Origin: Pseudomonas sp. L5B5
GTDB taxonomy: Bacteria; Pseudomonadota; Gammaproteobacteria; Pseudomonadales; Pseudomonadaceae
Direction of reading: 5' to 3'
DNA: 64,000 nt
NCBI RefSeq assembly: GCF_020520285.1
Contig: NZ_CP084742.1
Span: forward strand, 6,745,501-6,809,500
This document shows, one piece after another, positions 743 to 64,000 of the stretch (within the stretch, counting starts at the first letter, position 1; each line of letters starts with the position of its first letter). The notes under the pieces are model-generated. The model was given only the letters and a program-made list of their open reading frames with translations, was not told where the DNA came from and searched no databases. The position numbers were made by a program, and so were the translations under genes.

Positions 743-971
743 ACGGGCCATGCCTGCTTCGCGCCGGGGCATGTCTTGTGTGCAAGTACAGGCCTGGCAA
801 AGAACTCGCAAAGCATCTTCCGTGCTCGGTACTGGTCATCGAATCAGCGGCCGCTGAACACGACATACATGGAATCCTTCTGCGAGTGCGCTCTATCGTG
901 TGGTGTGTGAGATACGGCAGCCAATCGGCTGTGTCGCTCTCTTCGGTATGCACGGTACTACCTCGAATCCT

Positions 972-1045: not shown

Positions 1046-1203
1046 GGGCTAATACTGTTCGAAAGCTTCCTGTCTTTCTGGATGGAGCTCGATGAACTGT
1101 ACTAGACGAAATTTTAGGAGAAGGCCGCTGATTGTACGGCCCTCAGGTTGATTTGAACGCTACTGCTGCATTACTGGAGCTTGTTTTTCAAAGAAGCGCG
1201 AGT

Positions 1204-1632
1204 CTAAGCGTCCGTAGTAACCTGAGTCTGTTCGAGATTCTTTTCAACCTCAGCAAATGCTGGGCCGCCTTTGAAAACGAATTTCCGTTTGCTCACTTTT
1301 CGGCCAGAGGCTCCTATTCCGGCGCTGAAGCCTTCGCCGTCGGCTCTCACCCCGGCGTGACCCTTGCCCGAATAATCGAAATATTCTGTCATTTCCACTT
1401 CATGGGCTGTTTCGATGCGCCGCGCGATAGCCAGCTCTTGGGCTACCCGCGCCTCAGCCTCGGACATGCGCATTTCTAGCTCCCTGCGCTCGGCCTCGAT
1501 GCGCAGCTCCTCGATCTCAACTGGCTCAAGGCGATCACTCACCGATTTTTCGAATGCGTCAATGAGGTATCCGGTGGGACTATTGAAGATCTTGAGTGCC
1601 TCGAGTGCAGCTGCTCCAATTTCGATGGCCAT
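1204..1632 (-). CDS. Unknown coiled-coil protein
   Basis: A 142-residue protein of no family I recognise. The first 20 residues are mildly hydrophobic (IGAAALEALKIF) but do not form a signal peptide. Residues about 30-75 are a charged helix rich in Glu/Arg/Ala (EELRIEAERRELEMRMSEAE), likely a coiled coil. The tail is Gly- and Lys-rich. Translation is well supported: a strong AAGGAGGAA lies 6 bases before the ATG, and a plausible -10 (TATAGT) lies just upstream. The gene is isolated, with lower G+C surroundings and the paired repeats on either side, which suggests accessory DNA. Function is unknown. Confidence 0.6.
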   Translation of the reverse strand: MAIEIGAAALEALKIFNSPTGYLIDAFEKSVSDRLEPVEIEELRIEAERRELEMRMSEAEARVAQELAIARRIETAHEVEMTEYFDYSGKGHAGVRADGEGFSAGIGASGRKVSKRKFVFKGGPAFAEVEKNLEQTQVTTDA

Positions 1633-1740
1633 TTGCTTCCTCCTTGGTGGGAACGCAAAACTATAGCGGACTGATTATTCTGTCCAGCGGGCGCAAGCCA
1701 ATCGCCTGTTACGCATTGATTAAGGGAAAGCGGGGAGATC

Positions 1741-1812
1741 GTTCTGTGTGCATACAGTATTTCGATTGAAAGTTCCGGCTACCGGAAGCGGACGAACTGT
1801 ATGTGGGGAGGG
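1741..1812 (+). repeat. Diverged direct repeat, copy 2
   Basis: This partner of the segment at 972-1045 has TTCTGTGTGCATACAGTA (the same box with two bases missing, so CTG-N8-CAG), the perfect hairpin TTCCGG-CTA-CCGGAA, then GCGGACGA, CTGTATG and a G-rich run. The shortened spacing should weaken LexA binding. It lies upstream of the unknown 142-residue gene but beyond its likely promoter. Confidence 0.35.
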
Positions 1813-1988
1813 AGGCTGCTGGCTCGGCAGAGCGCCGGAGGCGGGCTACAGCAGTATGCGCCATCGGCATATTGCGGTTGCAGTAGATTGAGGCGAAAGC
1901 CTCTTCAAAAGATCAAAATATTCGGACGCGTCCAAAAACGCTTGAGCTTGGTCGATGCCGATAGGTCAGAAGCAAAATATGCCAGACA

Positions 1989-2018
1989 CAAAAAAGCCCT
2001 GAAAAATCAGGGCTTTCT
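1989..2018 (-). terminator. Rho-independent terminator of tRNA-Ser
   Basis: Read on the minus strand, GAAAGCCCTGA-TTTT-TCAGGGCTTTTTT forms a stable stem followed by a T tract, about 10 bases after the tRNA CCA end. Confidence 0.85.
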
Positions 2019-2028
2019 CGTTGAGATT

Positions 2029-2116
2029 TGGCGGAGGCGTAGAGATTCGAACTCTAGGACCTGTTACAGTCGGCGGTTTTCAAGACCGCTGCCTTAAACC
2101 ACTCGGCCACACCTCC
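2029..2116 (-). tRNA. tRNA-Ser (anticodon UGA)
   Basis: An 88-nt class II tRNA with encoded CCA. The acceptor stem pairs GGAGGTG with CGCCTCC. The D-arm is GCCGAGTGGTTTAAGGC. The anticodon arm GCGGT-CTTGAAA-ACCGC gives anticodon TGA, reading UCA-type serine codons. A long variable arm and the T-arm AGAGTTCGAATCTCT follow. It has its own promoter and terminator and is divergent from the Bax-inhibitor-1 gene. No integrase or attachment-site duplication was seen beside it. Confidence 0.97.
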
Positions 2117-2135
2117 AGATCGCGTTGCGGGCGCC

Positions 2136-2163
2136 ATAATACCCGAATGAAACACACTGTCAA
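2136..2163 (-). promoter_or_regulatory. Sigma-70 promoter of tRNA-Ser
   Basis: On the minus strand a perfect TTGACA -35 and TATTAT -10 are separated by 16 bases. They are followed by a G+C-rich GGCGCCC discriminator, typical of stringently controlled stable-RNA promoters. The tRNA 5' end lies about 20 bases after the -10. Confidence 0.85.
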
Positions 2164-2239
2164 ACTCTCTGCGTCGCGAGTTACAGCGCCTCTGTTATCA
2201 TCCTTGCCACTAAATGTTTCCCCCAACAGGAGTGTCGCC

Positions 2240-2911
2240 ATGCGCGAACAGGATTACGCAGTCAACAACGGCGTGCAGGCCGAGCAGCTAGAGGTTAGCC
2301 GCGTCCTGCGCAACACCTACGGCCTGTTGGCCCTGACCCTCGCCTTCAGCGGTGTCATGGCTTATGTGGCACAACAGATGCGTGTCGGCTACCCGAACGT
2401 CTTCGTAGTGCTGATCGGTTTCTACGGTCTGTTCTTCCTCACCAGCAAGCTCCGCGATTCGGTCTGGGGCCTGGTCTCGACGTTCGCCCTGACCGGCTTC
2501 ATGGGTTTCCTGCTGGGCCCGATCCTCAACCGCTACCTGGGCATGCAGGGCGGCGCTGAAGTCGTCAGCTCGGCCTTCGCCATGACGGCGCTGGTGTTCG
2601 GTGGCCTGTCGGCCTACGTGCTGATCACTCGCAAGGACATGAGCTTCCTGGGTGGTTTCATCACCGCCGGTTTCTTCGTCCTGATGGGCGCCGTGCTGGC
2701 CAGCCTGTTCTTCCAGATCAGCGGCCTGCAACTGGCGATCAGCGCCGGCTTCGTGCTGTTCTCCTCGGTGTGCATCCTGTTCCAGACCAGTGCCATCATC
2801 CACGGCGGCGAGCGCAACTACATCATGGCGACCATCAGCCTGTATGTATCGATCTACAACCTGTTCGTCAGCCTGCTGCAGTTGTTCGGCATCATGAGCC
2901 GCGACGATTGA
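2240..2911 (+). CDS. Bax inhibitor-1/YccA family membrane protein
   Basis: A 223-residue inner-membrane protein of the BI-1/TMBIM family (YccA/YbhL-like). After a hydrophilic N-terminus (MREQDYAVNNGVQAEQLEV) there are about seven hydrophobic helices from residue 25 to 215. Family members are proposed to influence FtsH protease activity or leak cations; which applies here is not visible. The chosen ATG is preceded by ACAGGAG; a longer in-frame extension would run through the divergent tRNA gene and is rejected. A strong terminator follows, so the gene is probably monocistronic. Its placement beside tRNA-Ser is, to my recollection, seen in other pseudomonads. Confidence 0.92.
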   Translation: MREQDYAVNNGVQAEQLEVSRVLRNTYGLLALTLAFSGVMAYVAQQMRVGYPNVFVVLIGFYGLFFLTSKLRDSVWGLVSTFALTGFMGFLLGPILNRYLGMQGGAEVVSSAFAMTALVFGGLSAYVLITRKDMSFLGGFITAGFFVLMGAVLASLFFQISGLQLAISAGFVLFSSVCILFQTSAIIHGGERNYIMATISLYVSIYNLFVSLLQLFGIMSRDD

Positions 2912-2932
2912 TCTCCAGGTCCACGACCTTGG

Positions 2933-2959
2933 AAAAACCCGCTTCGGCGGGTTTTTTTA
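2933..2959 (+). terminator. Rho-independent terminator after BI-1 gene
   Basis: AAAACCCGC-TTCG-GCGGGTTTTTTT is a UUCG-capped G+C-rich stem with flanking A and T tracts, about 25 bases after the stop codon. The A tract means it could also act for the convergent Lrp gene. Confidence 0.93.
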
Positions 2960-2994
2960 TGGCTCGGTTCTACTGGCCGGGGCAGGGGCCGTGA

Positions 2995-3432
2995 TCATTC
3001 CATGGGCGGCAGTCGGCGCTTTATCGGCGACTTCTTGACGATCGAGGTATTGGTTTCGGCGTACTGGTTGAGACGGTCCAGCAAGCTGTCCAGTTGTTCC
3101 ATGGAACGCACCTGGAGACGGGCGATAAAGCAGTCGTCGCCGGTGACCTTGTCGCACTCGGTGAATTCGGCAATCGCCAGGATCTGCCGCTCGACTTCCT
3201 GCAGCTTGCCCGGCAATGGCCGGATACGCACGATGGCCTGCAACTGGTAACCCAGGAACCTGGGATCGACTTCCAGGGTATAGGCGCTGATCACCCCGCG
3301 TTCCTCGAGCCTGCGCAGGCGCTCGGCGACACTGGGGGCGGACAACCCGCTGATTTGCCCCAGGGCCTTGAGCGAACGTCGGGAATCCTGCATCAGGGCA
3401 CTGATCAGTGCCTGGTCAATAGCATCCAGCAT
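2995..3432 (-). CDS. Lrp/AsnC family transcriptional regulator
   Basis: A 145-residue feast/famine regulator. The N-terminal winged helix-turn-helix (DQALISALMQDSRRSLKALGQISGLSAPSVAERLRRLEERGVI) recognises DNA. The C-terminal RAM domain (residues about 65-135, including GDDCFIARLQV) binds amino acids and mediates oligomerisation. The gene is divergent from the EamA-type exporter about 130 bases away, a layout in which such regulators often control an amino-acid exporter; that link is inferred. The SD is weak (GAGAT). Confidence 0.93.
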   Translation of the reverse strand: MLDAIDQALISALMQDSRRSLKALGQISGLSAPSVAERLRRLEERGVISAYTLEVDPRFLGYQLQAIVRIRPLPGKLQEVERQILAIAEFTECDKVTGDDCFIARLQVRSMEQLDSLLDRLNQYAETNTSIVKKSPIKRRLPPME

Positions 3433-3561
3433 GGCAATCTCGTTAGGTTGATAGGTGGTTTTGCCTTGATAAAAAAGGTGCCGGCTGAGTCTAGCCTAGG
3501 ATTGGCCATGGTGAGTCTACCGATGGGTTGCGCATAATCTGGTGACTGATAAAGGAGCCTG

Positions 3562-4458
3562 ATGATGGATGCACTGATTCGTCGCGGATCGCTGGAAATG
3601 AGCGCCGCCATGTTGATTTCCGGGACCATTGGCTGGTTCGTCCTGGTCTCCGGGCAGCCGGTGCTGGACGTGGTGTTCTGGCGCTGCCTGTTTGGCGCCG
3701 CCGCCTTGCTGCTGATCTGCGCCGCCCTGGGTTTCCTGCGCAGGGGCATTCTCTCCCGGCAGGCGCTGATCCTGGCTGTGGTCAGCGGTGCGGCCATCGT
3801 CGGCAATTGGGTGCTGCTGTTCAGCTCCTATTCCCGGGCCTCGATCGCCATCGGCACTGCGGTTTACAACGTCCAGCCGTTCATCCTGGTGGGGCTGGGT
3901 GCCCTGTTTCTGGGGGAAAGGATCACGGCGCAGAAACTGTCCTGGCTGGGCCTGTCGTTCGCCGGGATGCTGGCGATCGTCAGTGCCCATGAAGGGCAGG
4001 GGGAAGCCGGCAACGACTACCTGCTGGGTATCGCCCTGGCCCTGGGGGCGGCCTTGCTGTATGCCTTCGCCGCGTTGCTGATCAAGCGCTTGAAGGGTAT
4101 CCCGCCGCACCTGATCGCGCTGGTCCAGGTCTGCACCGGGGTGCTGTTGCTGGCACCCTGGGCCAACCTCGGTACGCCGCCCCAGGAGGCCACTGCATGG
4201 GCCAGCCTGCTGGCCCTGGGCATCATCCATACCGGGGTGATGTACGTGCTGCTCTACGGCGCGATCCAGAAGCTGCCGACCGCGCTGATCGGCGCCCTGT
4301 CGTTCATCTATCCGATTGCGGCGATCTTCGTCGACTGGCTGGCGTTCGGGCATCGCCTGGGCTGGCTGCAGTGGCTCGGTGTGGGGGCCATCCTGCTGGC
4401 CGCCGCGGGCATGCAACAGGGGTGGAGCTTGAGGCCCTGGCGTGCCCTCCAGCAGTGA
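3562..4458 (+). CDS. EamA-type (DMT superfamily) transporter
   Basis: A 298-residue inner-membrane protein with about ten predicted helices forming two EamA repeats (residues about 12-140 and 155-290). Members of this drug/metabolite group usually export amino acids or small metabolites; the substrate here cannot be read from sequence. A very good AAAGGAG precedes two adjacent ATGs. Spacing favours the second, but both give essentially the same protein. The divergent Lrp-type regulator suggests amino-acid-responsive control. Confidence 0.92.
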   Translation: MMDALIRRGSLEMSAAMLISGTIGWFVLVSGQPVLDVVFWRCLFGAAALLLICAALGFLRRGILSRQALILAVVSGAAIVGNWVLLFSSYSRASIAIGTAVYNVQPFILVGLGALFLGERITAQKLSWLGLSFAGMLAIVSAHEGQGEAGNDYLLGIALALGAALLYAFAALLIKRLKGIPPHLIALVQVCTGVLLLAPWANLGTPPQEATAWASLLALGIIHTGVMYVLLYGAIQKLPTALIGALSFIYPIAAIFVDWLAFGHRLGWLQWLGVGAILLAAAGMQQGWSLRPWRALQQ

Positions 4459-4694: not shown

Positions 4695-6974
4695 ATGAGC
4701 ACTCGACGCAAGGTTCCCGGAGTCCGTAGCTACGATGGTCCCGCCGGTGGCTGGGGTGCGCTCAAGGCAACGGCCACGGCCGTGCGCGAGCAGATGGACA
4801 CCCTCAAGGCGCCCTTGACCCTGATGCGCACCAACCAGCCCGACGGCTTCGACTGCCCGGGTTGTGCCTGGCCGGACAAGGAGCACAAGTCGACCTTCCA
4901 GTTCTGTGAGAATGGCGCCAAGGCGGTGACCTGGGAGGCCACCAACAAACGGGTGACGTCCGAGTTCCTGGCCAGCCATCCGGTGGCCTCGCTGCTGCAG
5001 CGTTCGGACTATCAGCTGGAGGACCTCGGGCGCCTCACCGAGCCGCTGGTCTACGACCGTGCCAGCGACACCTTCAAGCCAGTGCAATGGCAAGCCGCCT
5101 TCGAACGCATTGGCCAGATCTTGCGCGGCCTGGCCCCCGAACAGGTGGAGTTCTACACCTCGGGCCGCGCCTCCAACGAGGCGGCCTACCTGTACCAGCT
5201 GTTCGCCCGGGAGTATGGCTGCAACAACTTCCCGGACTGTTCGAACATGTGCCACGAGCCCACCAGCGTCGGTCTGCCCAGGTCCATAGGCATTGGCAAG
5301 GGCACGGTATCGCTGGAGGATTTCGATACCTGTGAGCTGATCATCTCCATCGGTCACAACCCCGGCACCAACCATCCGCGGATGATGGGCACCCTGCACG
5401 AAGCGTCACGGCGCAAGGTGCCGATCATGGTCTTCAACCCGCTGCGCGAGCGGGCCCTGGAGCGGTTCGCCGATCCGCAGAACATGGTAGAGATGGCCAC
5501 CTATGGCTCCACCCGCATCGCCTCGTCGTACTTCCAGGTCAAGGCCGGCGGCGACGCGGCCGCGATCAAGGGCATCATGAAGGCCCTGCTGGCCCTGGAA
5601 GACAGCCTGGGACAGGTGCTGGACCGCGACTTCATTGCCCAGCACACCCTGGGCTTCGCTGCGCTGGAGGCCGACCTGCACGCCACCCAATGGGCGGATA
5701 TCGAACAGGCCAGCGGCCTGCACCAGGCAGACATGGAACTGGTCGCCGCGGCCTATGCCAAGTCCAATGCCACCATCGTCACCTACGGCATGGGCATCAC
5801 CCAGCACAACGAGGGCACCGCCAATGTCCGGCTGATCTGCGACCTGCTGATGCTGAGGGGCAACCTGGGCAAGCCCGGGGCCGGGATCTGCCCGCTGCGC
5901 GGCCACTCCAACGTGCAGGGCAACCGCACCGTCGGCATCACTGAAAAACCTGCGCAACCGTTTCTCGACAAACTCGAGCAAGTGTTCGGCTTCAAGCCAC
6001 CGGCAGCCCATGGCCATGACGCGGTGCAAGCCATGCAGGCGATGATCGCCGGCAGCGCCAAGGCCCTGCTGTGCCTAGGCGGCAACTTCGCCGTGGCCTT
6101 GCCGGACCCTGGCCAGTGTTTCCCGGCCATGGGCCAGCTCGACTTGAGCGTGCACATCGCCACCAAGCTCAACCGCAGCCACCTGCTGGTGGCCCGGGAA
6201 ACCTTCATTCTTCCGTGCCTGGGCCGCACTGAACTGGATGTGCAGGACGGCCTGCGCCAGGCGATCACCGTCGAGGACTCGATGTCCATGGTCCATGCCT
6301 CGGCCGGCAAGCTGGCCCCGGCCTCGCAAGCCCTGATGTCGGAACCGGCGATCGTCGCCGGCATGGCCAAGGCGACGCTGACCGCGAGCAAGGTGCCGTG
6401 GCTGGAACTGGTGGCCGACTACGACAAGATCCGCGACCTGATCGAACGCACCGTGCCCGGCTTCGACGACTACAACGCCCGCATCCGCGTGCCGGGCGGT
6501 TTCCGCATGCCCCTGGCGGCGGCCGAGCGGCGGTGGCTGACGCCCTCGGGCAAGGCCGAGTTCTTTGTCTTCCCCGGATTGCACGAAGACAAGGAAGTGG
6601 ACGGTGCTGATGTCCTGCGCTTGGTGACCCTGCGCAGCCACGACCAGTACAACACCACCATCTATGCCCTGGACGATCGTTATCGCGGGGTATTCGGCCG
6701 TCGCGACGTGCTGTTCATCAGCCCGACGGACCTGGCGGCCCGGGGCCTGGCCCATGGCGACCTGGTGGACATCGAGACGGTGACCGAGGGCCGGCGTCTG
6801 CGCTACGAGAACATCACCGCCGTCGAGTACAAGATCGCCCCGGGCACCGTCGGTGCCTACTACCCCGAGGCCAACCGCCTGGTGCCGCTGGACTACCTGG
6901 ACGTCGACAGCGGCACGCCGTCCTACAAATCGGTGCCTGTACGCGTCGTGCGTTCAACCGTGCCGCTGCCGTAG
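4695..6974 (+). CDS. FdhF/YdeP family molybdopterin oxidoreductase
   Basis: A 759-residue bis-MGD oxidoreductase of the YdeP branch, related to the catalytic subunit of formate dehydrogenase H but of poorly defined substrate. The N-terminus carries C54-P-G-C57 (GFDCPGCAWP), a reduced relic of the usual Fe-S motif. The body has FPDCSNMCHEPTSVGL, GHNPGTNHPRMMGTL and the cofactor-binding GMGITQHNEGTANVR and GNLGKPGAGICPLRGHSNVQG segments. The C-terminal molydopterin-dinucleotide domain includes LVTLRSHDQYNTTIY. No signal peptide is seen, so it acts in the cytoplasm. The ATG with upstream GGAG is preferred over a longer leader. Downstream are fdhD and cofactor genes that would mature it. Confidence 0.93.
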   Translation: MSTRRKVPGVRSYDGPAGGWGALKATATAVREQMDTLKAPLTLMRTNQPDGFDCPGCAWPDKEHKSTFQFCENGAKAVTWEATNKRVTSEFLASHPVASLLQRSDYQLEDLGRLTEPLVYDRASDTFKPVQWQAAFERIGQILRGLAPEQVEFYTSGRASNEAAYLYQLFAREYGCNNFPDCSNMCHEPTSVGLPRSIGIGKGTVSLEDFDTCELIISIGHNPGTNHPRMMGTLHEASRRKVPIMVFNPLRERALERFADPQNMVEMATYGSTRIASSYFQVKAGGDAAAIKGIMKALLALEDSLGQVLDRDFIAQHTLGFAALEADLHATQWADIEQASGLHQADMELVAAAYAKSNATIVTYGMGITQHNEGTANVRLICDLLMLRGNLGKPGAGICPLRGHSNVQGNRTVGITEKPAQPFLDKLEQVFGFKPPAAHGHDAVQAMQAMIAGSAKALLCLGGNFAVALPDPGQCFPAMGQLDLSVHIATKLNRSHLLVARETFILPCLGRTELDVQDGLRQAITVEDSMSMVHASAGKLAPASQALMSEPAIVAGMAKATLTASKVPWLELVADYDKIRDLIERTVPGFDDYNARIRVPGGFRMPLAAAERRWLTPSGKAEFFVFPGLHEDKEVDGADVLRLVTLRSHDQYNTTIYALDDRYRGVFGRRDVLFISPTDLAARGLAHGDLVDIETVTEGRRLRYENITAVEYKIAPGTVGAYYPEANRLVPLDYLDVDSGTPSYKSVPVRVVRSTVPLP

Positions 6975-7214
6975 GCTGCGCACGGGCGCGCAGCGGCCGC
7001 GAAGATCGTGAAAGCGCCGCGGCTCCAAGCAAGGCCCTGCGGGCCTTTGCGCAGCTTCGCAGGCTCAGCAGCGGCTACAGGGGCGTGCGAGGCCAGTGTC
7101 TCATCATGGATTACCTGAAGACCCGCGCCCCGTTCTGGAAGCAGCGGCGAGCACTGGGTCGAGAGTCGTGCGAACGATCAGCAAGCTGCCAGCCGCAACC
7201 CTGATCACCCTCTA
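6975..7214. other. REP-like spacer before the 174-bp array
   Basis: This stretch holds fragments of REP-type palindromes (GGGCGCGCAGCGGCC, GCAAGGCCCTGCGGGCCTTTGC, CAGCAGCGGCTACA) and no supported gene. The GGCCCTGCGGGCC hairpin could help stop the upstream oxidoreductase transcript, but it lacks a T run. Confidence 0.5.
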
Positions 7215-8020
7215 TTGGCCTGGAACCGGCTGTGGTGGCGAGGGAGCTCGCTCCCGCTCGGCTGCGCAGCGGCCGCAAGACCTGAATCCTCGACATGCCT
7301 GATCGAGCACCTGCGCAGCGGATGGCAAGGCTGCGCCTTGCAACGGGAGCAAGCTCCCTCGCCACGGGGAGCGGGGGCACTGCTGCTATTGGTCTGGAAC
7401 CGGCTGTGGTGGCGAGGGAGCTCGCTCCCGCTCGGCTGCGCAGCGGCCGCAAGACCTGAATCCCCGACATGCCTGATCGAGCACCTGCGCAGCGGATGGC
7501 AAGGCTGCGCCTTGCAACGGGAGCAAGCTCCCTCGCCACGGGGAGTGGGGGCACTGCTGCTATTGGCCTGGAGCCGGCTTTGGTGGCGAGGGAGCGCGCT
7601 CCCGCTCGGCTGCGCAGCGGCCGAAAAACCTGAATCCCCGACATGCCTGATCGAGCACCTGCGCAGCGGATGGCAAGGCTGCGCCTTGCAACGGGAGCAA
7701 GCTCCCTCGCCACGGGGAGTGGGGGCACTGCTGCTATTGGCCTGGAGCCGGCTTTGGTGGCGAGGGAGCTCGCTCCCGCTCGGCTGCGCAGCGGCCGCAA
7801 GACCTGAATCCTCGATCTGCCTGATCGAGCACCTGCGCAGCGGATGGCAAGGCTGCGCCTTGCAACGGGAGCAAGCTCCCTCGCCACGGGGAGTGGGGGC
7901 ACTGCTGCTATTGGCCTGGAACCGGCTGTGGTGGCGAGGGAGCTCGCTCCCGCTCGGCTGCGCAGCGGCCGCAAGACCTGAATCCTCGATCTGCCTGATC
8001 GAGCACCTGGCCAGTGGATG
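7215..8020. repeat. Tandem array of about five 174-bp REPIN units
   Basis: Near-identical units recur at exact 174-base intervals (unit starts at 7221, 7395, 7569, 7743 and 7917; the last is partial). Each unit carries two inverted REP-type arms, GGCGAGGGAGCTCGCTCCCG and CGGGAGCAAGCTCCCTCGCC, joined by a CTGCGCAGCGGCCGCAAGACCTGAATC segment. The arms could pair into a long hairpin. Because 174 is a multiple of three, stop-free frames run through the array on both strands; these are repeat artefacts, not genes. The array lies between the convergent oxidoreductase and fdhD genes and reaches the fdhD stop. Single-base differences between units suggest recent amplification. Confidence 0.95.
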
Positions 8021-56525: not shown

Positions 56526-59153
56526 ATGCCGGCAAGATCCCCCACCAGCATTCTCGAAACCCTTGAAGGCCAGCGCCTGCAAGGGCCGCACGCCGCACAG
56601 TGGCGGCAGTGGGGGCCCTACCTGAGCGAACGGCAGTGGGGCACGGTGCGCGAGGACTACAGCGCCGATGGCGAGGCCTGGAAGTATTTTCCCCATGACC
56701 ACGCCCGCAGCCGAGCTTATCGCTGGGGCGAGGATGGCCTGGCCGGGTTCTCCGACAAGGACCAGCACTGGTGCCTGGGGCTGGGGCTGTGGAACGAGCG
56801 CGACGGCATTCTCAAGGAGCGCCTGTTCGGCCTGGACAACGCCGAAGGCAATCATGGCGAGGACGTCAAGGAGCTGTACTTCTACCTCGATGGGGTGCCC
56901 AGCCATGCCTACATGCGCATGCTCTACAAGTACCCCCAGGGCGCCTTTCCCTATGCCGACCTGGTGGCGGAAAACGCCCGCCGAGGCCTGGAGGACGCCG
57001 AGTACGAAATCCTCGATACCGGGATCTTCGAGGACGACCGCTACTTCGACGTGACGGTGGAGTATGCCAAGCACACTGCCGACGACCTGTTGATGCGCGT
57101 CACGGTGCACAACCGCTACCACCAGCCGGCGCGCCTGCGGGTGCTGCCCCAGGTCTGGGCGCGCAATACCTGGAGCTGGGGCGGCGGCGAGCCACGGCCG
57201 AGCCTGAATCTGGACGGCGACCGGCTGACGGCGCGGCACCCCAGGCTGCCCGAACGCCAAGTCAGCGCCTGGGGCGCCGAACCCTGCCAGTGGCTGTTCT
57301 GCCACAACCAGAGCAACTTCCAGCGGCTCGATGGCCTGGCCTCACCGGGGCCGTTCAAGGACGGGATCAACGATTACCTGGTCCATGGCCAGGCTGGGGC
57401 GGTGACCTTCGATTCCGGCACCAAGGCCGCCGCGCATTTTGTCCTGGAGCTGGCCGGTGGCCAGAGCCAGAGCCTGTACCTGCGCTTCGCCCCTGCCGGC
57501 AGCGAACCGGTGGATGCGCGTCGCCTGTTCGAGCAGCGCCGGCACGAGGCCGATGAATTCTATGGCGCACTGCAGCACGGGATGGCCGATCCGGATGCAC
57601 GCAATGTGCAGCGCCAGGCCCTAGCCGGGCTGCTGTGGTCCAAGCAGCTGTACTACTTCGACGTCAATCAGTGGCTCGATGGCGATCCCGGGCAACCGCC
57701 GCCGCCCGGCCAGCGCCTGCACCGGCGCAACAGCCATTGGCGGCACTTGTCCAACTGCGACATCGTCAGCATGCCCGATACCTGGGAGTACCCCTGGTAC
57801 GCCTCCTGGGACCTGGGCTTCCAGGCCGTGGCGTTCGCCCTGATCGACCCGGAGTTCGCCAAGCAACAGTTGCTGCTGTTGGTCAAGGATCGCTTCATGC
57901 ACCCCAACGGCCAGCTACCGGCCTATGAATGGCGCTTCGACGACGCCAACCCGCCGGTGCATGCCTGGGCCTGCTGGCGGGTCTACCAGCAGGAAAAGTC
58001 CCTCACCGGCGAAGGTGACATGGATTTTCTCGAGCGGGTCCTGCACAAGCTGCTGCTGAATTTCTCCTGGTGGGTCAACCGCAAGGACGCTGAAGGCCGC
58101 AACCTGTTCCAGGGCGGTTTTCTGGGCCTGGACAACATCGCGCTGTTCGACCGCTCCGCGCCCTTGCCCGAAGGTTTCAGCCTGGACCAGGCCGATGGCA
58201 CCGCCTGGGTCGCGGCCTATGCCCTGGACCTGATGCGCATTGCCCTGGAACTGGCCCGGCGCAACCCCGTGTACGTGGATATCGCGGTGAAGTTCTTCGA
58301 GCATTTCCTGTACATCGCCGGGGCCATCAACCGCGTGGACGACAGCGCCGAGGGCCTGTGGGACGAACAGGACCAGTTCTTCTACGACGTGCTGCAACGT
58401 CCCGACGGGCGCAGCGAGCCGCTGCGCCTGCGTTCCATCGTCGGCCTGCTGCCGTTGTTCGCGGTGCAGGTGCTGGAGCAGCACGAGCACGAGTGCCTGC
58501 CGGGGCTGGCCCAGCGCCTGCTGGGCTTTTTGCACCATCGGCCGGACCTCGCCAGCCTGGTGTCGCGCTGGTACGAGCCGGGCAAGGGCAATCGCCTGCT
58601 GCTGGCGCTGCTGCGCGGTGAGCGCACCAAGGATTTGCTCAAGCGCATGCTCGACGAGGCGGAGTTCCTCTCGGCGTTCGGTATCCGCTCGCTGTCCAAG
58701 GTCTTCCAGCAACCGTTCGTCCTGCAGGTCGATGGCAAGCAGTTGTGCGCCCGCTATGAACCGGCCGAGTCCGACTCGCGCCTGTACGGCGGCAACTCCA
58801 ACTGGCGCGGGCCGCTGTGGATGCCGATCAACTACCTGCTGATCGAATCCCTGCGTGAATTCCATCGCTACTACGACGTCAACTTCTCGGTGGAATATCC
58901 CCGGGGTTCCGGCTACCTGGCGTCCCTGCAAGAGGTGGCCGACAGCCTGAGCCAGCGCCTGACCCGGCTGTTTCTCCTGGATGAAGACGGGCGGCGCCCC
59001 TCGATGAGCGGCTACCCGCAGTTGCAGGCCGATGCCCGGGACCGCGAACTGGTGCTGTTCCATGAATACTTTCACGCCGAGAACGGACGCGGGCTGGGGG
59101 CCAGCCACCAGACCGGCTGGACCGCATTGGTGGCGTTGTTGTTTCAGCGTTGA
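56526..59153 (+). CDS. GH63-like glucosidase (MGH1-type)
   Basis: An 875-residue cytoplasmic glycoside hydrolase with the MGH1/GH63 (alpha/alpha)6-barrel, related to yeast and bacterial GH63 glucosidases and mannosylglycerate hydrolase. The N-terminal beta-rich half (QWGTVREDYSADGEAWKYFPHDHARSRAYRWGEDG) is followed by the catalytic barrel with MPDTWEYPWYASWDLGFQAVA (candidate acid Asp in WDLGF), LPAYEWRFDDANPPVHAWA and GGNSNWRGPLWMPINYL. It probably cleaves an alpha-glucoside or compatible-solute glucoside. AAGGAG precedes ATG by 8 bases. Its last 10 bases overlap the convergent NTPase gene. Confidence 0.92.
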   Translation: MPARSPTSILETLEGQRLQGPHAAQWRQWGPYLSERQWGTVREDYSADGEAWKYFPHDHARSRAYRWGEDGLAGFSDKDQHWCLGLGLWNERDGILKERLFGLDNAEGNHGEDVKELYFYLDGVPSHAYMRMLYKYPQGAFPYADLVAENARRGLEDAEYEILDTGIFEDDRYFDVTVEYAKHTADDLLMRVTVHNRYHQPARLRVLPQVWARNTWSWGGGEPRPSLNLDGDRLTARHPRLPERQVSAWGAEPCQWLFCHNQSNFQRLDGLASPGPFKDGINDYLVHGQAGAVTFDSGTKAAAHFVLELAGGQSQSLYLRFAPAGSEPVDARRLFEQRRHEADEFYGALQHGMADPDARNVQRQALAGLLWSKQLYYFDVNQWLDGDPGQPPPPGQRLHRRNSHWRHLSNCDIVSMPDTWEYPWYASWDLGFQAVAFALIDPEFAKQQLLLLVKDRFMHPNGQLPAYEWRFDDANPPVHAWACWRVYQQEKSLTGEGDMDFLERVLHKLLLNFSWWVNRKDAEGRNLFQGGFLGLDNIALFDRSAPLPEGFSLDQADGTAWVAAYALDLMRIALELARRNPVYVDIAVKFFEHFLYIAGAINRVDDSAEGLWDEQDQFFYDVLQRPDGRSEPLRLRSIVGLLPLFAVQVLEQHEHECLPGLAQRLLGFLHHRPDLASLVSRWYEPGKGNRLLLALLRGERTKDLLKRMLDEAEFLSAFGIRSLSKVFQQPFVLQVDGKQLCARYEPAESDSRLYGGNSNWRGPLWMPINYLLIESLREFHRYYDVNFSVEYPRGSGYLASLQEVADSLSQRLTRLFLLDEDGRRPSMSGYPQLQADARDRELVLFHEYFHAENGRGLGASHQTGWTALVALLFQR

Positions 59154-62100
59154 TTTTTACGCTGTAGGGCCGTGCGTCGAATGTTCTGAGTTACGTGATC
59201 GTTACAGCCGCGCACACAAGCCAGATCCAATATGCGTAGGGCCTCATCAGGATCGTTGAGCTTTTCCATTTGGTAGGTTGCTTCTTCAGCGTAGAGCACT
59301 GGGTCGCGAGTGCCTGCTTCTATTCTGGCCAGGCGTGATTTGGAGGCCTCTGCGCCACGACCCAGTTTCTCGAGCACTGTGCCTCGGATGGAGAAACTGT
59401 AATCGTTGAAGCACTGGCGTTTGCTGGCAAGGTCCAAAAGACGCAATGCTTCATTGGCATCATTACATTGCAGCAATTGGTATCTTGCTTCGTCGTTGTA
59501 GAACGCTGAGCTCTTAGTGCCGTCATTAATAGCTTGACGACGTTGAACGGAAGCCTCTGGGCCACGGTTCAGGTTTTCGAGCACTTTGTTCCGGATGGCT
59601 AAGCTGTGATCGTTGGAACACTGGCGTTTTATAGCAAGATCCAAAATGCGCAGAGCCTCGTTGGCATCCTTGGATTGTTCCAACTGGTATTTGGCTTCTT
59701 CGGTGTAGAACGCAGAGTTATTACTGCCGTCTTCTATGGCTTGACGGCGCTGAAGCATGGCCTCATTCGGATCTCCTACAAGTTTTTGGCAACGGTTCTG
59801 GATGGACTGGACATGGTTGTTGATGGCTTCAGGGTAGGCTTTCTGGTGCTCCTCAAGCCGTGCCAGAAACTCTTCCGCTCCAATCGGACCTCGCCCCAGA
59901 AGCAGCTTGCCGAGATTAGCCAGGTAGGGTGGAAACTGCGGGCTGAGCTCCAGGGCTTTTTCAAAGGCCTGCAAGGCCTCATCGCAAGTATCTCCTTGGG
60001 TCTTCTGCAGGCATTCGCCAAGGAAGCGCTGGGCCTTGTGCTCGCGAGGATGAATATTGGTCAGCAGTCGTAGGACTTCCTGTTGTCGTTCAATCGACTC
60101 CCCGGCATCGCGGCGACGGTGGTAAATGGCCCAAAGGGCCTCATTGCTCCAGCCGATTTCCTTTCCGGTCAAATGATCGATCCACCTCTCGATGTTCCCC
60201 AACTCATCGCAACACAGCAGGTGATAGAAACTTTCGTTGGCGCGCTGGAGGTTGATCTGCTCCTTCTGTCGGCCAATCTGCTGCTGCCAGCAATGGGCGA
60301 TCACCAGATGCATTTCCGCTACTTGCGCTGGAATTTCGCCTGCATAGTCGGGAGTGAGTTCGGCATCCTTGAGTGCCAGCTTTTTCTGTCGTGTCCAACT
60401 CGCGATGAAACCATGCAGGTAGTGATCCTTGTTGCTGTCCAGAGGAAGCAGTCCGCGCCTTCTGAGGTTCTGCCAGGCATCCTTGATACCAAGACGGTCC
60501 TCCAGGGAGTCGGCATGATCCTGTGGAATCGCATTGCGGTACAGCGCCAGAGCCTTGAGCAGTGTCTGTTCGGCATTGCCCAGTATTTCGTCGTGAATAA
60601 TACCGAGCAGTTTTTCGTCCAGGCGTTCGATGACCTCATGGCGAAGGTTCTGATAGACCGCCAGAGGAGAGCTTTTCCTTTCTAGCGCAATGGTGGCAAG
60701 CAACTCGATTGCTAGGGTATGGGCAGTGCCTCCCTGTCCTCCACCCAGCCACTGGTAGAGTGCTCTCAAGTTATTGCCGGTATAAGTCCACTCGGCTTTC
60801 TGCTCTTGAGGAGCCCTGGCTGCCAGTAGGGAAGCCAGGCCTGCCCGGTCCAGACCGGGTATTTCCAGGATCGTGCAGTCACGGCCAAAGCTGCCTTCTT
60901 CCGGTTTTTCGCTCAGTTCATAGACCCACTTCCAGCGGGGGAAGGCACGAGCCAGAGCTGCCAGCAGCGTACGAATCTCAGGGTTGCGCCATTGCGATTT
61001 CTTGAACAGTAGGTGCGCGCCGTCGACCCAGATGAACGCGTTCTGGGCATGGGGATAAAGCTGTTTGAGCTCTTGTGTCTGTTCTTCGATGCTTCCGCTG
61101 GGTGGCAGTGGATCTTCTCGACGGCTATTGAGCACATCCAGCAGTCGGCGGAAAAATTCACCGCAGGTCATCTGGCGACTTGAGTGAATATCGACAAAGA
61201 CCATTCCCTGGAAGGATACCTGTCTGTGCAGTGCCTTGATCAGTGTAGTCTTGCCATTGCCACTTAGGCCATGTAACGCAATGGAGGGTGTTTCCTCGAG
61301 CAGGGTACAGAGGCTGGCGATCAGTTTGTCCCGACCGAATAGCTCTGCCGGTGCCGGGGTTTGGTGGTGCGATGGATGGTCATGCACTGCCAACGGTGGG
61401 ATTTCCACTATGTCTAGGACTGCTACAGCCGACGCCAGGGCAGCCCGGACTGAATGCTTGAAGGACCAGAGTCCGTCGGGCGCCATATCAGCAACAGTCT
61501 GTACTTTCCAACCATTCTTGTATTCGAACAGATGAGCCACCCCGTCACCTTGTTGCAGGTCGAGGCTGACGAGGTTGAAACCGAACTGGTCATCGGTGTC
61601 GGCACCAATGGCGCCTGCTTCGAGCTTGATCAGGCGTTGCCCGGGATCGAGCCAGGGGTTGTGACTATGCCCATGCAACCAGAACTGGAAATCGTGAGCC
61701 TTGCGTTTTTTGATGAGCTCCATTTCGGCTTGATTGAACCAGTCCCGGGGATGGTGGATCAGGCCAATCTTCAGGTCAGTCCCTTCCAAGGCACTGCTCA
61801 TGTGGTTGAACTGCCACTGTGCTCCAAGCCACATCTGCCCCTTATCGTCGTTGTCGTAGCAACTCCATGCAGAGTTGAATCCGGCGATGCCAACCTTGAT
61901 ACCGTTCAGGTTGATCCGGTGAGCATAAAGGTGTCGTACTGAGTCATGCAGATGTGGCAGGTACTCTGCGGTGAATACACCATAGTCTTCCATCCGCTGC
62001 ATGTCAGCCTTGAACTCTGGGGGCAGGCTGTCAAAGCGGGAGCTGATTTCGAGCTGGTGTTGCATGGAGTCTTTGGCCATGGTCCGTAAGTGATGTTGCT

Positions 62101-62428
62101 GGCCGGCGAGGACTTTCTTGCGATTCACATCATGATTGCCCGGTACGACGAACAGCCGCTCCCGCTCCAGGCCACAACAGGCAAGCAGCTGATTGAAGAA
62201 GTCTTTGGCCGGCTTGTACTGCTCAAGCATTGGACAGTCCGGTGTCTGACCAAAAGCAATGTCGCCCGTGCAGAAGATCAACTGTGGTTTGGGCAGTGTG
62301 CCGTTCTGGAACTTTTGGTTCAGGAACTCCAGTAACTGGCGACGTGCATGGCTATCCGACCAGGCAGTTTTTTGATGAAAGTGGATATCCGAGAGGTGGA
62401 GCCAATTTAGCGAGTGGTGATTGGGCAT
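59144..62428 (-). CDS. Metallophosphoesterase-STAND-like NTPase-repeat protein, candidate defence gene
   Basis: A 1,094-residue multidomain protein. Residues 8-260 are a complete calcineurin-type phosphoesterase: D14-I-H16, GD56, GNH99-D100, H225-H226 and GH254-S-H256. Residues about 360-600 are a P-loop NTPase with Walker A GLSGNGKTT (387-395), Walker B FIWVD469, and the ILEIPGLDRAGLASLLAARA segment seen in STAND/NB-ARC proteins. A winged-helix-like region follows (about 620-700, ...LRRRGLLPLD...YLHGFI). TPR-type helical repeats fill about 780-1094 and end in three 69-residue copies. This effector-switch-sensor order suggests ligand-triggered nuclease or phosphoesterase activity, as in anti-phage STAND proteins; function is unproven. 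Base composition looks lower in G+C than its neighbours. The start is an ATG without a clear SD. Confidence 0.88.
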   Translation of the reverse strand: MPNHHSLNWLHLSDIHFHQKTAWSDSHARRQLLEFLNQKFQNGTLPKPQLIFCTGDIAFGQTPDCPMLEQYKPAKDFFNQLLACCGLERERLFVVPGNHDVNRKKVLAGQQHHLRTMAKDSMQHQLEISSRFDSLPPEFKADMQRMEDYGVFTAEYLPHLHDSVRHLYAHRINLNGIKVGIAGFNSAWSCYDNDDKGQMWLGAQWQFNHMSSALEGTDLKIGLIHHPRDWFNQAEMELIKKRKAHDFQFWLHGHSHNPWLDPGQRLIKLEAGAIGADTDDQFGFNLVSLDLQQGDGVAHLFEYKNGWKVQTVADMAPDGLWSFKHSVRAALASAVAVLDIVEIPPLAVHDHPSHHQTPAPAELFGRDKLIASLCTLLEETPSIALHGLSGNGKTTLIKALHRQVSFQGMVFVDIHSSRQMTCGEFFRRLLDVLNSRREDPLPPSGSIEEQTQELKQLYPHAQNAFIWVDGAHLLFKKSQWRNPEIRTLLAALARAFPRWKWVYELSEKPEEGSFGRDCTILEIPGLDRAGLASLLAARAPQEQKAEWTYTGNNLRALYQWLGGGQGGTAHTLAIELLATIALERKSSPLAVYQNLRHEVIERLDEKLLGIIHDEILGNAEQTLLKALALYRNAIPQDHADSLEDRLGIKDAWQNLRRRGLLPLDSNKDHYLHGFIASWTRQKKLALKDAELTPDYAGEIPAQVAEMHLVIAHCWQQQIGRQKEQINLQRANESFYHLLCCDELGNIERWIDHLTGKEIGWSNEALWAIYHRRRDAGESIERQQEVLRLLTNIHPREHKAQRFLGECLQKTQGDTCDEALQAFEKALELSPQFPPYLANLGKLLLGRGPIGAEEFLARLEEHQKAYPEAINNHVQSIQNRCQKLVGDPNEAMLQRRQAIEDGSNNSAFYTEEAKYQLEQSKDANEALRILDLAIKRQCSNDHSLAIRNKVLENLNRGPEASVQRRQAINDGTKSSAFYNDEARYQLLQCNDANEALRLLDLASKRQCFNDYSFSIRGTVLEKLGRGAEASKSRLARIEAGTRDPVLYAEEATYQMEKLNDPDEALRILDLACVRGCNDHVTQNIRRTALQRKNQR
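59147..59749 (-). repeat. Three in-frame 207-bp repeats at the 3' end of the NTPase gene
   Basis: The final 201 residues consist of three copies of a 69-residue helical unit (the last cut at 63). Each reads (R/L)...A-I-x-D-G, then Y-x-E-E-A-x-Y-Q-L, D-A-N-E-A-L-R-I-L-D-L-A and C-x-N-D-H. Copies 1 and 2 are the most alike. Tandem duplication at this end points to recent growth of the probable ligand-recognition surface. Confidence 0.9.
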
Positions 62429-62572
62429 GGTATTGAGCAATCATGAAAAAGGCAGTGGGGCGCTAGCATAGCCCTGCAAATGGATGGGATCCAATGTCCC
62501 CGGCCTGCACTGCGAAGTCTTTGTGACAGCGTGGTGCAGGCTGGCAATCAAGCCCGAGGGGAGTGTGCCCGC

Positions 62573-64000
62573 TCAGGTACTCAAGGTATCCGGCTGCGGC
62601 ACTGCCCAGTCCTCGATCAAGCGCTGCGGCGTGCAGCAGGTCTTGCGCTTGTACACGAAGTTGCAGCACTTCTCGGCGAAGCCCTTGCGGTTCTGCACCA
62701 TGTCCATGTGCATTTCTTCCAGCTCGGCGTTGCGGCAGTGCTGCATCAGTTGCGGGTCGGCGTCGAGCTTGCGCTGGCGCAGGTGCTGGTAGCGCGGGTC
62801 GCTGGGCACGCCATTGGCCCGCTGCAGCAGCCACAGGCCGAACTCCTCGGGGTCGCGCGGGCCGATTTCCTGGACCATGCCCATCTGCAGGGCCTGGAGC
62901 GCACTGATGGGCAGGCAGGCTTCGGTCAACTGCCGGGCCAGTGGCTGGCCTACCGCCCGAGGCAGGCTGTAGGTCCAGTATTCGGAGCCGAACAGGCCCA
63001 TGCTCTTGTAATGGGGGTTGTACACGGTATCGGCTCGGGCCAGGACCACGTCGGCGGCCAGGGCCAGCATCAGGCCGCCGGCGCCGGCATTGCCGGTCAG
63101 GCCGCTGACCACCAGCTGGCGGGCGGTGAGCAGCTCGCGGCAGACATCGTCGATGGCCTGGATGTTGGCCCAGGCCTCCAGGCCCGGCTCCGGGGCGGCC
63201 TGGATCACGTTCAGGTGCACACCGTTGCAGAACGCACCGCGCCCGCCGCGCACCAGCAGTACCTGGGTATCCCGGGCTTTGGCCCATTGCAGGGCGGTGA
63301 CCAGGCGCTGGCATTGTTCGGTGCTCATGGCGCCGTTGTAGAACTCGAAGGTCAACTCCCCGACCTTGCCCGATTCACGATAGCGGATGGGCTGGTAGGC
63401 CTCGGTGCTGAACGGCGTGCTGGAAACCGACCAGTCCAGTACCGGCACCTGGGCCAGGCGCTCGCCGAGTACATGCCGCGCGGGTTGCTTGAAGGTTTCC
63501 TCGCCGGGCTGGGGCTTGATCCGCAGGGAGCCGATCCACAGGCTGCTGTCGCCGCAGGCCACCAGCACCGCATCGTCGTGCACTGCCAGCAGTTCGCCGG
63601 GGGTGCCGGTGCGTGCATCCAGGTGGGCGTCGTACACGTAGTACTGACCGCCCGCGAGGCTGGCCAGGACCCCGGGCTGGCCGTCGGCGGCGTCGATGCT
63701 GCGCTTGATGAACCGGGCGCAGTCATGCCAGCTGAAGGTGCGGTCGCACTGTTTCATGTTCGGTTGCAGGCGGCCGAGCACCGAAGGCTTGTCGTAGTCC
63801 AGGGGTTCGGGGGTGAAGCCGCTGCGGAATTTTTCCACGACGTCGCGAATGCAGTGGATCGCCGCGTCGCTGACCAGGCCGTTGTACAGCTCGGATTTGC
63901 GCATGCCGGCGGGCAGGTTGAATTCGTGAGTGGACCAGATCGGCCCGGCGTCCATTTCTTCCACTGCCTGCAAGGCAGTGACGCCCCAGCGCTTGAGCTC
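62573..64000 (-). CDS. hypX: HypX-like hydrogenase maturation/formyltransferase protein (5' end missing)
   Basis: The 476 C-terminal residues of a gene whose start lies outside the window. The visible N-terminal part (VTALQAVEEMDAGPIWSTHEFNLP) is the end of a formyl-transferase domain, followed by its C-terminal OB-like part (LARFIKRSIDAADGQPGVLASL-type). Residues beyond about 210 form an enoyl-CoA hydratase/crotonase domain (GGRGAFCNGVHLNVIQ, LTGNAGAGGLMLALAADVVLARADTVYNPHYKSMGLFGSEYWTYSLPRAVG). This fusion is HypX, which makes CO for NiFe-hydrogenase under aerobic conditions. No hydrogenase genes are in the window, so the client is unclear. The NTPase gene follows by 145 bases on the same strand. 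Confidence 0.88.
   Translation of the reverse strand, partial: ELKRWGVTALQAVEEMDAGPIWSTHEFNLPAGMRKSELYNGLVSDAAIHCIRDVVEKFRSGFTPEPLDYDKPSVLGRLQPNMKQCDRTFSWHDCARFIKRSIDAADGQPGVLASLAGGQYYVYDAHLDARTGTPGELLAVHDDAVLVACGDSSLWIGSLRIKPQPGEETFKQPARHVLGERLAQVPVLDWSVSSTPFSTEAYQPIRYRESGKVGELTFEFYNGAMSTEQCQRLVTALQWAKARDTQVLLVRGGRGAFCNGVHLNVIQAAPEPGLEAWANIQAIDDVCRELLTARQLVVSGLTGNAGAGGLMLALAADVVLARADTVYNPHYKSMGLFGSEYWTYSLPRAVGQPLARQLTEACLPISALQALQMGMVQEIGPRDPEEFGLWLLQRANGVPSDPRYQHLRQRKLDADPQLMQHCRNAELEEMHMDMVQNRKGFAEKCCNFVYKRKTCCTPQRLIEDWAVPQPDTLST

What the first reader, a model, noticed from the sequence alone, without database searches (positions are those of the whole stretch)
59144..62428. Candidate single-gene immune system: calcineurin-type phosphoesterase fused to STAND-like NTPase and helical repeats
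All metal-binding motifs of a calcineurin-like phosphoesterase (DxH, GD, GNHD, H, GHxH) are intact at the N-terminus. A P-loop NTPase with Walker A/B and an NB-ARC-like segment, a winged-helix-like stretch and TPR-type repeats follow. This effector-switch-sensor order is the logic of prokaryotic STAND defence proteins (Avs, bNACHT and relatives). The usual effectors there are nucleases, proteases or TIR domains; a phosphoesterase effector is much less characterised. The gene stands alone and looks less G+C-rich than its neighbours (bases 59641-59700 contain 29 G+C out of 60 by hand count). It lies between unrelated metabolic genes.
Basis: partly seen in the sequence, partly recalled or inferred. 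Interest (0 to 1): 0.82.

Follow-up and report, generated by a model that had tools for sequence, protein, structure and literature searches.

The report
Phosphoesterase-armed bacterial STAND immune-type protein
A bacterium carries a single large gene built like an immune sensor: a metal-dependent phosphoesterase "weapon", an ATP-driven switch and a fast-changing repeat sensor; the weapon is related to that of a recently proven anti-phage protein, but the switch belongs to a different family for which I found no experiment.

Summary
ORF 59144-62428 (-) encodes 1094 aa: calcineurin-type phosphoesterase (MPE), STAND NTPase (Pfam nSTAND6, 195 bits), helical region, TPR-type repeats. Metal-ligand motifs and Walker A residues are invariant in 97 aligned homologues. 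Gene G+C is 54% in 65.7% surroundings.

Immune-type logic is well supported. (1) The same nSTAND6 chassis carries MPE, SIR2, TIR or PNP effectors; a tree needs at least 9 effector changes. (2) The same MPE sits on NACHT, nSTAND5 or ABC-type ATPases. (3) The MPE scores 116 bits with anti-phage DS-8; seven other MPE segments of this genome, 15 or none. (4) The gene is patchy: 12 of 12 relatives resolved at the GH63-hypX site lack it, one holding a PADLOC defence candidate instead; P. chlororaphis has it. (5) C-terminal 69-aa repeats vary in number between close orthologues.

It is not unprecedented: DS-8 (Science 2026) is a proven MPE-NACHT defence protein. This is a variant on another STAND chassis, not a DS-8 member (111 bits against a cut-off of 790). 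A small test found no defence-gene enrichment around homologues. Substrate, trigger and anti-phage activity are untested.

The parts
59144..62428 (-). whole gene, 1094 aa: phosphoesterase - nSTAND6 NTPase - helical/WH-like - TPR-type repeats (in-frame TTG at 62440 is a possible longer start)
   Evidence: start shared with homologues
61439..62428 (-). residues 1-330: calcineurin-type metallophosphoesterase effector
61349..61438 (-). residues 331-360: linker, low confidence in the model and the least conserved stretch (37% identical to P. chlororaphis)
60839..61348 (-). residues 361-530: nSTAND6 NTPase (Walker A 387-394, Walker-B-like 465-469)
   Evidence: PF25201 195 bits, invariant G387/G390/G392/K393, Foldseek of residues 358-765 to Roq1, Apaf-1, Sr35, CED-4, Avs4, Avs3 and to Cdc6/ORC
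60329..60838 (-). residues 531-700: helical / winged-helix-like segment of the switch, the most conserved part against P. chlororaphis (89% identical)
   Evidence: the winged-helix assignment rests on the fold matches only
59771..60328 (-). residues 701-886: first part of the TPR-type superhelix
59144..59770 (-). residues 887-1094 and stop: three 69-aa repeats, the putative variable sensor
   Evidence: copy number 2, 3 or 4 among close orthologues; 71% identical to P. chlororaphis, highest dN/dS of the folded parts
59149..62603 (.). stretch absent from empty sites of close relatives (GH63-hypX junction)
   Evidence: alignment of both flanks to L139, L105 and L108 stops here; 89-93 bp between the aligned gene ends there

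Best explanation
A single-gene STAND-type immune protein. Shown from sequence: an intact-motif phosphoesterase at the N-terminus, a P-loop STAND NTPase with a helical/winged-helix-like region in the middle, and a C-terminal TPR-type superhelix. Inferred: in the resting cell the NTPase is held closed; the C-terminal repeats bind an invader-made protein (most likely a phage protein); nucleotide exchange lets the protein assemble and releases or brings together the phosphoesterase domains; these cleave a phosphodiester or nucleotide substrate and stop growth or phage replication. Because most other effectors recognised on this same chassis (SIR2, TIR, PNP) belong to families that act on NAD+ or nucleotides (family knowledge), a soluble nucleotide is a more likely substrate than DNA or RNA (my estimate about 55 to 30, remainder other).
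For: Domain order and intact motifs. Effector exchange on one chassis: of 172 nSTAND6 proteins stored from three capped searches, 137 carry the MPE and 35 do not; of these 35, by precomputed Pfam labels, 10 carry TIR, 10 PNP, 3 SIR2, 1 PF13271, 1 PF00211 and 10 nothing recognised; 7 of the 35 were re-scanned and agree. At least 9 changes on a tree of 169 rows, 159 labelled; P0134 (PNP) and P0127 (TIR) are 89% identical in the tree region. Reverse exchange: the MPE with NACHT+LRR, nSTAND5, ABC-type ATPase, and C-terminal in a SIR2-NACHT protein. The MPE scores 115.9 bits with DS-8; seven other MPE segments of this genome score 15.1 or are not listed for DS-8. DS-8 needs both its MPE and its NTPase for defence. 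Patchy at a variable site. Repeat array variable.
Against: I found no anti-phage experiment on any nSTAND6 protein (no held paper has the word). PADLOC hits among 115 neighbours of 12 homologue loci were no more frequent than among 115 random proteins. No relative found in IMG/VR contigs or GenBank phages, and no plasmid hit covering 80% of the query, so mobility is seen only as presence/absence. P. chlororaphis has it at the same site, so it may be inherited stably. The NTPase fold matches include Cdc6/ORC and AAA+ proteins. dN/dS of the repeat region is 0.17, no sign of positive selection in this pair.
Confidence: 0.8

Rival explanations
1. Same STAND architecture, but the phosphoesterase is a nuclease (SbcD/Mre11-like) that cuts phage and host DNA or RNA after activation.
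For: A sequence profile of the MPE set matches an Mre11 chain best (40.1 bits) and Rv0805 at 33.8; a PADLOC model described as 'Endonuclease' effector matches residues 12-330 at 1.1e-25; Avs1-4 use nuclease effectors (PMC12931631, passages).
Against: Structural neighbours of the domain listed are SMPDL3A, Rv0805, GpdQ and purple acid phosphatases (a family not listed is not excluded); recognised effectors that swap on this chassis are mainly NAD+/nucleotide families; SbcD model only 14.4 bits.
Confidence: 0.3
2. The phosphoesterase destroys a signalling nucleotide (as SMPDL3A cleaves cGAMP), so the protein regulates or counters a signalling pathway rather than killing the cell.
For: DS-8's authors draw this parallel; SMPDL3A is among the closest solved folds, tied with others.
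Against: The swapped TIR, SIR2 and PNP effectors deplete or convert metabolites, by family knowledge. The neighbouring genes were not scanned for signal-making enzymes.
Confidence: 0.2
3. A MalT/AfsR-like STAND regulator of metabolism that happens to carry an MPE domain.
Against: Pfam shows no DNA-binding output domain; patchy at the site; effector exchange with TIR/SIR2/PNP.
Confidence: 0.08
4. Self/non-self or plasmid-exclusion function (abortive response to conjugation or transformation) rather than phage defence.
For: STAND proteins with variable C-terminal repeats serve such roles in fungi (stated in PMC10907252, passage).
Against: DS-8, with a homologous effector, acts against phage.
Confidence: 0.1

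Closest known systems
DS-8 (E. coli, NCBIfam NF053861; DefensePredictor, PMC13092281)
   Same: Single protein; homologous N-terminal phosphoesterase (115.9 bits over residues 11-305); P-loop NTPase; defence lost on mutating either domain.
   Different: DS-8's NTPase is NACHT; here nSTAND6. Whole-protein score 111 bits against a cut-off of 790, and the match ends with the phosphoesterase.
DS-9A (NF053862)
   Same: Related phosphoesterase (57 bits).
   Different: Two-gene system with a HAD phosphatase; score far below its cut-off of 420.
PADLOC PDC-S60
   Same: Its first 290 or so positions match our phosphoesterase (8.4e-33); L041 of another Pseudomonas matches positions 2-858 of 1027.
   Different: Our protein matches only positions 3-292 of 1027: different switch and sensor.
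Avs5 (AVAST type 5)
   Same: Effector-STAND-repeat order; TPR/Sel1/PPR sensor (PMC12931631). nSTAND6 proteins with SIR2 effectors exist.
   Different: Avs5 uses nSTAND3; ours scores 15.3 bits with nSTAND3, below its cut-off of 27.2.
Conflict systems with calcineurin effectors (PMC7159879; PMC8195603)
   Same: Calcineurin-superfamily phosphodiesterase predicted there as an exchangeable nucleotide-acting effector, beside TIR and PNPase (passages).
   Different: The passages seen name vWA-MoxR, GTPase, NACHT, MNS and nSTAND1/2 systems; the word nSTAND6 occurs in no paper of the held library.
SMPDL3A and Rv0805 phosphodiesterases
   Different: No STAND module; 12-22% identity; Z tied with purple acid phosphatases and GpdQ, so no substrate can be read from them.

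Membership tests
STAND NTPases (nSTAND6, PF25201) | curated profile match above cut-off | tested here: met
   195 bits against 27.7 over the whole 148-position model
STAND NTPases (nSTAND6, PF25201) | Walker A intact and conserved | tested here: met
   G387, G390, G392, K393 invariant in 97 sequences
STAND NTPases (nSTAND6, PF25201) | winged-helix / helical domain after the NTPase | tested here: inconclusive
   Foldseek ranks NLR, Apaf-1, Cdc6/ORC and CED-4 first, at low TM-scores (0.28-0.43); VIA-align tests mainly residues 1-239 of that model and ties AAA+ chains
STAND NTPases (nSTAND6, PF25201) | swappable N-terminal effector, C-terminal repeat sensor | tested here: met
   effector exchange; repeats; that they sense is inferred
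STAND NTPases (nSTAND6, PF25201) | nucleotide-driven oligomerisation on trigger | not testable with these tools
   needs protein
Calcineurin-like phosphoesterases (PF00149) | profile match and full metal-ligand set | tested here: met
   40.1 bits against 21.5; D14 H16 D56 N98 H99 H226 H254 H256 invariant
Calcineurin-like phosphoesterases (PF00149) | phosphodiesterase activity | not testable with these tools
   needs enzyme assay
DS-8 anti-phage protein (NF053861) | whole-protein score at or above 790 bits | tested here: not met
   111 bits, model positions 1-283 of 994 only
DS-8 anti-phage protein (NF053861) | homologous phosphoesterase effector | tested here: met
   115.9 bits for the domain alone; seven other MPE segments of this genome at 15.1 bits or not listed (those segments were shorter, 123-254 aa)
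DS-8 anti-phage protein (NF053861) | NACHT NTPase | tested here: not met
   NACHT 22.9 bits, below its cut-off of 26.7; nSTAND6 195 bits
DS-8 anti-phage protein (NF053861) | protects against phage | not testable with these tools
   needs plaque assays
Avs (AVAST) proteins | match to Avs model / nSTAND3 of Avs5 | tested here: not met
   Avs4 model 10.2 bits against 1500; nSTAND3 15.3 against 27.2; no PADLOC Avs model listed at E<=1
PDC-S60 | match over the full model | tested here: not met
   positions 3-292 of 1027
Defence-island gene | excess of known defence genes nearby | tested here: inconclusive
   115 neighbours of 12 loci against 115 random proteins, no excess; one clear case in Desulfobulbus; only 5 of the 12 loci hold nSTAND6 members, the other 7 hold MPE relatives on other switches

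The most novel reading that the evidence does not exclude
nSTAND6 proteins are a distinct, still untested branch of bacterial NLR-like immunity: one conserved switch on which nucleotide-acting effectors (MPE, TIR, SIR2, PNP) are exchanged, with a sensor that diversifies by gain, loss and homogenisation of a 69-aa repeat, in parallel with fungal HET and animal/plant NLR repeat arrays; the MPE is a new kind of nucleotide-depleting death effector, and the GH63-hypX junction is a small defence-gene exchange site of Pseudomonas.
Probability: 0.35. Interest if true: 0.68.

Novelty: new variant of a known kind. Interest (0 to 1): 0.52.

Why it matters
DS-8 shows that a phosphoesterase-NACHT protein stops phage, but its substrate is unknown. 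This family gives a second chassis for a homologous effector, with natural effector swaps and a repeat array of variable length. Swap partners narrow the likely substrate class, and orthologues with 2, 3 or 4 repeats are ready-made material to test whether the repeats set phage specificity.

Tried and rejected
NB-ARC label: below cut-off; replaced by nSTAND6. Housekeeping phosphoesterase (SbcD, CpdA, ApaH, LpxH, nucleotidase): rejected. DS-8 or Avs membership: rejected by scores. Phage- or plasmid-borne copies: no relative in viral contigs (the tool scanned two peptide patterns), none in GenBank phages, plasmids only MPE-level matches, 31 records, none covering 80% of the query. Defence-gene enrichment: not shown; the control regions come from other genomes at arbitrary places, a weak control. 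PF25201 across 369 genomes of the class: 171 match at E<=0.001 and 30 pass the cut-off, but only the own gene (199 bits) and one other (G650, 154) exceed 100 bits, the next being 43; I treat the weak ones as other AAA-type ATPases without testing them. Genus survey: 30 of 298 genomes have some match, but only the own gene is full length; the tool scored two candidates per genome and drew from a larger group. Sequence search of solved structures with the whole protein gave TPR proteins and two chance-level hits. YydB/YydD papers: three listed, none opened. Promoter/terminator scan: no more sites than shuffles. dS of the gene against P. chlororaphis (0.87) exceeds that of GH63 (0.56), so simple vertical descent is not proven; codon bias may explain it. 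The hypX dN/dS line against P. chlororaphis was misframed and is not used. A papers search for 'phage defence candidate' with PADLOC listed four papers, none opened; that PDC means phage-defence candidate is recalled.

Papers: passages only of PMC13092281, PMC7159879, PMC8195603, PMC12931631, PMC10907252; search listings for all others. That no held paper has the word nSTAND6 rests; my other searches for phosphoesterase-STAND proteins in print were (open-licence library only; most subscription papers are missing). Recalled, from no call: the names of PF13271 (DUF4062) and PF00211 (adenylate/guanylate cyclase), the activities of SIR2, TIR and PNP domains, and the genus name Pseudomonas for the window's genome, which is inferred from its synteny with P. 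chlororaphis and its nearest homologues.
Full report
Observation. The ORF is real and the coordinates are right: 59144-62428 on the minus strand, 1094 aa from ATG 62428. Pfam finds Metallophos (14-262 in the numbering from TTG 62440, 40.1 bits against 21.5) and nSTAND6 (367-513, 195 bits against 27.7); the TPR models and NB-ARC are below their cut-offs. In a 97-sequence family alignment the metal-ligand motif residues (D14, H16, D56, N98, H99, D100, H225, H226, H254, H256) and Walker A residues G387, G390, G392 and K393 are invariant. Gene G+C is 54.3% against 65.7% for the rest of the window and lower than all 243 overlapping windows of its length; the hand count of 29 is right.

Effector exchange on one chassis. 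Searching with residues 355-765 gave 36 proteins: by precomputed Pfam, 29 carry the MPE, 3 SIR2_2, 2 TIR_2, 1 PNP_UDP_1 and 1 nothing before the NTPase; hmmscan of those 7 non-MPE proteins agrees. A second search from a TIR member gave 158, of which the best 120 are listed; by hand count of the printed labels 79 MPE alone, 10 TIR, 10 PNP, 1 MPE plus TIR, 1 PF13271, 1 PF00211 and 18 with no recognised effector. With an MPE profile of my own on the 183 stored proteins (the lists were capped at 120), 172 have nSTAND6 above 60 bits, 137 of them with the MPE in front and 35 without; 8 of the 18 unlabelled ones have the MPE by this profile. These are not frequencies, since the first search used an MPE-bearing query. 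On a FastTree tree of 169 of the 172 (344 columns), 159 labelled with six effector states, at least 9 changes are needed; 62 of 166 inner branches are weakly supported and long branches meet, so 9 is approximate, but starred branches alone force 5 gains or losses for TIR and 4 for PNP (unlabelled rows counted as a further state). The closest case is P0134 (PNP) and P0127 (TIR), 89% identical in this region. The three SIR2 proteins lie in a 20-row set (support 100) with the window's protein.

Exchange in the other direction. One genome scan gave 68 loci encoding MPE relatives. My profiles find nSTAND6 clearly in 6 (L034-L039) and the MPE in ORFs of 67 of 68 (not in L070, whose ORF my caller did not give), mostly near the N-terminus of larger proteins, C-terminal in three (L055, L081, L086). 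Eight were scanned with Pfam: NACHT+LRR (L050), nSTAND5 (L069), AAA_15/AAA_21 (L046), SIR2-NACHT-MPE (L055); below cut-off only: nSTAND4 (L041), TPR (L052), AAA_16 (L060); no second domain (L071).

Not a typical housekeeping phosphoesterase. Seven other Metallophos segments of this genome match SbcD, CpdA, ApaH, LpxH and nucleotidase models; three (L001 SbcD, L003 ApaH, L008 LpxH) pass a family cut-off, four do not. For DS-8 one of the seven scores 15.1 bits and six are not listed; the best DS-9A score is 26.8. The window's domain scores 115.9 with DS-8, 60.9 with DS-9A and 14.4 with SbcD. The comparison is uneven: the seven were given as Pfam-matched segments of 123-254 aa, ours as 329 aa. 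One search listed nine matches including this one; one of the other eight had no locus and was not scanned. DS-8 is a single protein with a metallophosphatase and a NACHT domain whose anti-phage effect is lost on mutation of either (PMC13092281, passages). The DS-8 model aligns to our protein only in the MPE (111 bits against 790), as in 7 of 9 other MPE-bearing proteins scanned; in L041 the match runs to residue 465, and L073 has none.

The site. Of 398 genomes of the genus sampled, 89 (the own one included) have the GH63 gene. GH63 loci of 33 relatives were fetched (29, 4). hypX lies within the 1.5-kb flank in 9 of 33; for 5 of the other 24 I took more DNA and found it in 3; 19 were not followed up. 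So 12 relatives have both genes resolved, and 0 of 12 carry this gene: 7 have short gaps (89, 92, 93, 142, 145, 174 and about 409-436 bp between aligned gene ends), 2 (G071, G390) have an ORF of 312-313 aa, tested in G071 as an APH-type phosphotransferase, 2 (G272, G073) have about 1.96 kb with two ORFs, and 1 (G374) has a KAP NTPase of 604 aa that matches PADLOC PDC-S49 over nearly its whole length (2.6e-187). G293 is closer to the window's genome (GH63 dS 0.35) than P. chlororaphis PCL1601 (0.56), yet is empty, while P. chlororaphis carries the gene (82% aa identity, 55.7% G+C in 66.7% flanks) at the same place. Loss, or exchange through the flanks, would explain this. In the genus sample only the own gene is full length among 298 genomes.

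The sensor. Between this protein and P. chlororaphis the last 208 residues are 71% identical, against 88% for the MPE, 80% for the NTPase, 89% for the helical part and 88% for the first TPR part; dN/dS there is 0.17, the highest of the folded parts but far below 1. Against 7 further homologues the same stretch is the lowest of the folded parts in 6 (in P0008 only by 0.52 to 0.53); in P0003 the NTPase is lower (0.83 against 0.84). The stretch consists of 69-aa units: 3 in P0002, P0003 and P0007, 4 in P0004, 2 in P0005 and P0006; over 102 of 104 family proteins with hits the counts are 1 (7), 2 (51), 3 (33), 4 (6), 5 (4) and 12 (1). In P. chlororaphis units 1 and 2 are 81% identical to each other but 71% to their counterparts here, as expected from repeat homogenisation or recent duplication; in the window's protein units 1 and 2 are only 65% alike.

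Neighbourhood. PADLOC scan at 1e-10: among 115 neighbours (150 aa or more) of 12 loci, 16 models are hit, each by one member (the tool does not say how many different proteins; 6 of the 16 are LmuB models hit by one L035 protein); among 115 proteins from 12 arbitrary regions of other genomes 7 models are hit, 8 matches. So no enrichment. One neighbour, L040:53-7939, was left out for its length. The clear positive is L035 (Desulfobulbus, nSTAND6 member): LmuB at 6050-7885, with LmuA and LmuC models also hit in the set (not assigned to a locus by the tool) and two ORFs between LmuB and the nSTAND6 gene. L034 has one partial CARF-type match.

Mechanism. Shown: domain content, conserved motifs, exchange of effectors, patchiness, repeat variation. 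Inferred: trigger binding by the repeats, NTPase-driven assembly, MPE activation, growth arrest. By family knowledge SIR2 and TIR domains consume NAD+ and PNP-type domains act on nucleosides or nucleotides; since these replace the MPE on the same switch, I favour a soluble nucleotide as substrate, with a nuclease as the main rival. Calcineurin-superfamily domains were already predicted as nucleotide-acting effectors in related conflict systems (passages).

Verdict. A sound first-stage call. The protein is a new variant of a known kind: a phosphoesterase-armed STAND protein on the nSTAND6 chassis. The core idea (MPE effector with a STAND-type switch in defence) was proven for DS-8 in 2026, which lowers surprise; the two-way effector exchange, the alternation with a defence candidate at one chromosomal site and the repeat-number variation are the parts worth following.

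Noticed in passing
L136:9733-11547 (+), GH63-hypX junction of G374: A 604-aa KAP NTPase matching PADLOC PDC-S49 over nearly its whole length stands where this gene stands in the window's genome.
   Followed up: partly
L133:776-1717 (-) and L134:803-1741 (-); L132 and L135: An APH-type phosphotransferase (tested in G071 only), alone or with a second ORF (no Pfam match in G272), occupies the same junction in other relatives; it may be the older content of the site.
   Followed up: partly
L055:2125-8073 (+), Myxococcales: One 1982-aa protein carries SIR2 near the N-terminus, NACHT in the middle and this MPE type at 1636-1911, i.e. two effector types on one switch.
   Followed up: no
P0046: Precomputed Pfam list shows both TIR_2 and Metallophos with nSTAND6 in one 1244-aa protein.
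   Followed up: no
L035:636-7885 (Desulfobulbus): nSTAND6 homologue followed on the same strand by a LmuB gene with two ORFs between, probably a Lamassu system.
   Followed up: partly
P0111-P0113 and L046:906-3215: The same MPE (about 47-51% identical) fused to an ABC/AAA_15-type ATPase; together with the strong fold match to 9a6c_B (YydD-YydB model) this suggests the effector is shared with ABC-ATPase systems.
   Followed up: partly
model m432a787211ba: Foldseek aligns about 850 columns to human SAMD9 (E about 1e-8, TM-score low at 0.13); a SAMD9 likeness is reported for Avs5.
   Followed up: no
window 1-4000: The next-lowest G+C stretch of the window (about 57% in 3285-base windows starting at 1-751), with a tRNA-Ser at 2029-2116; not examined.
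   Followed up: no
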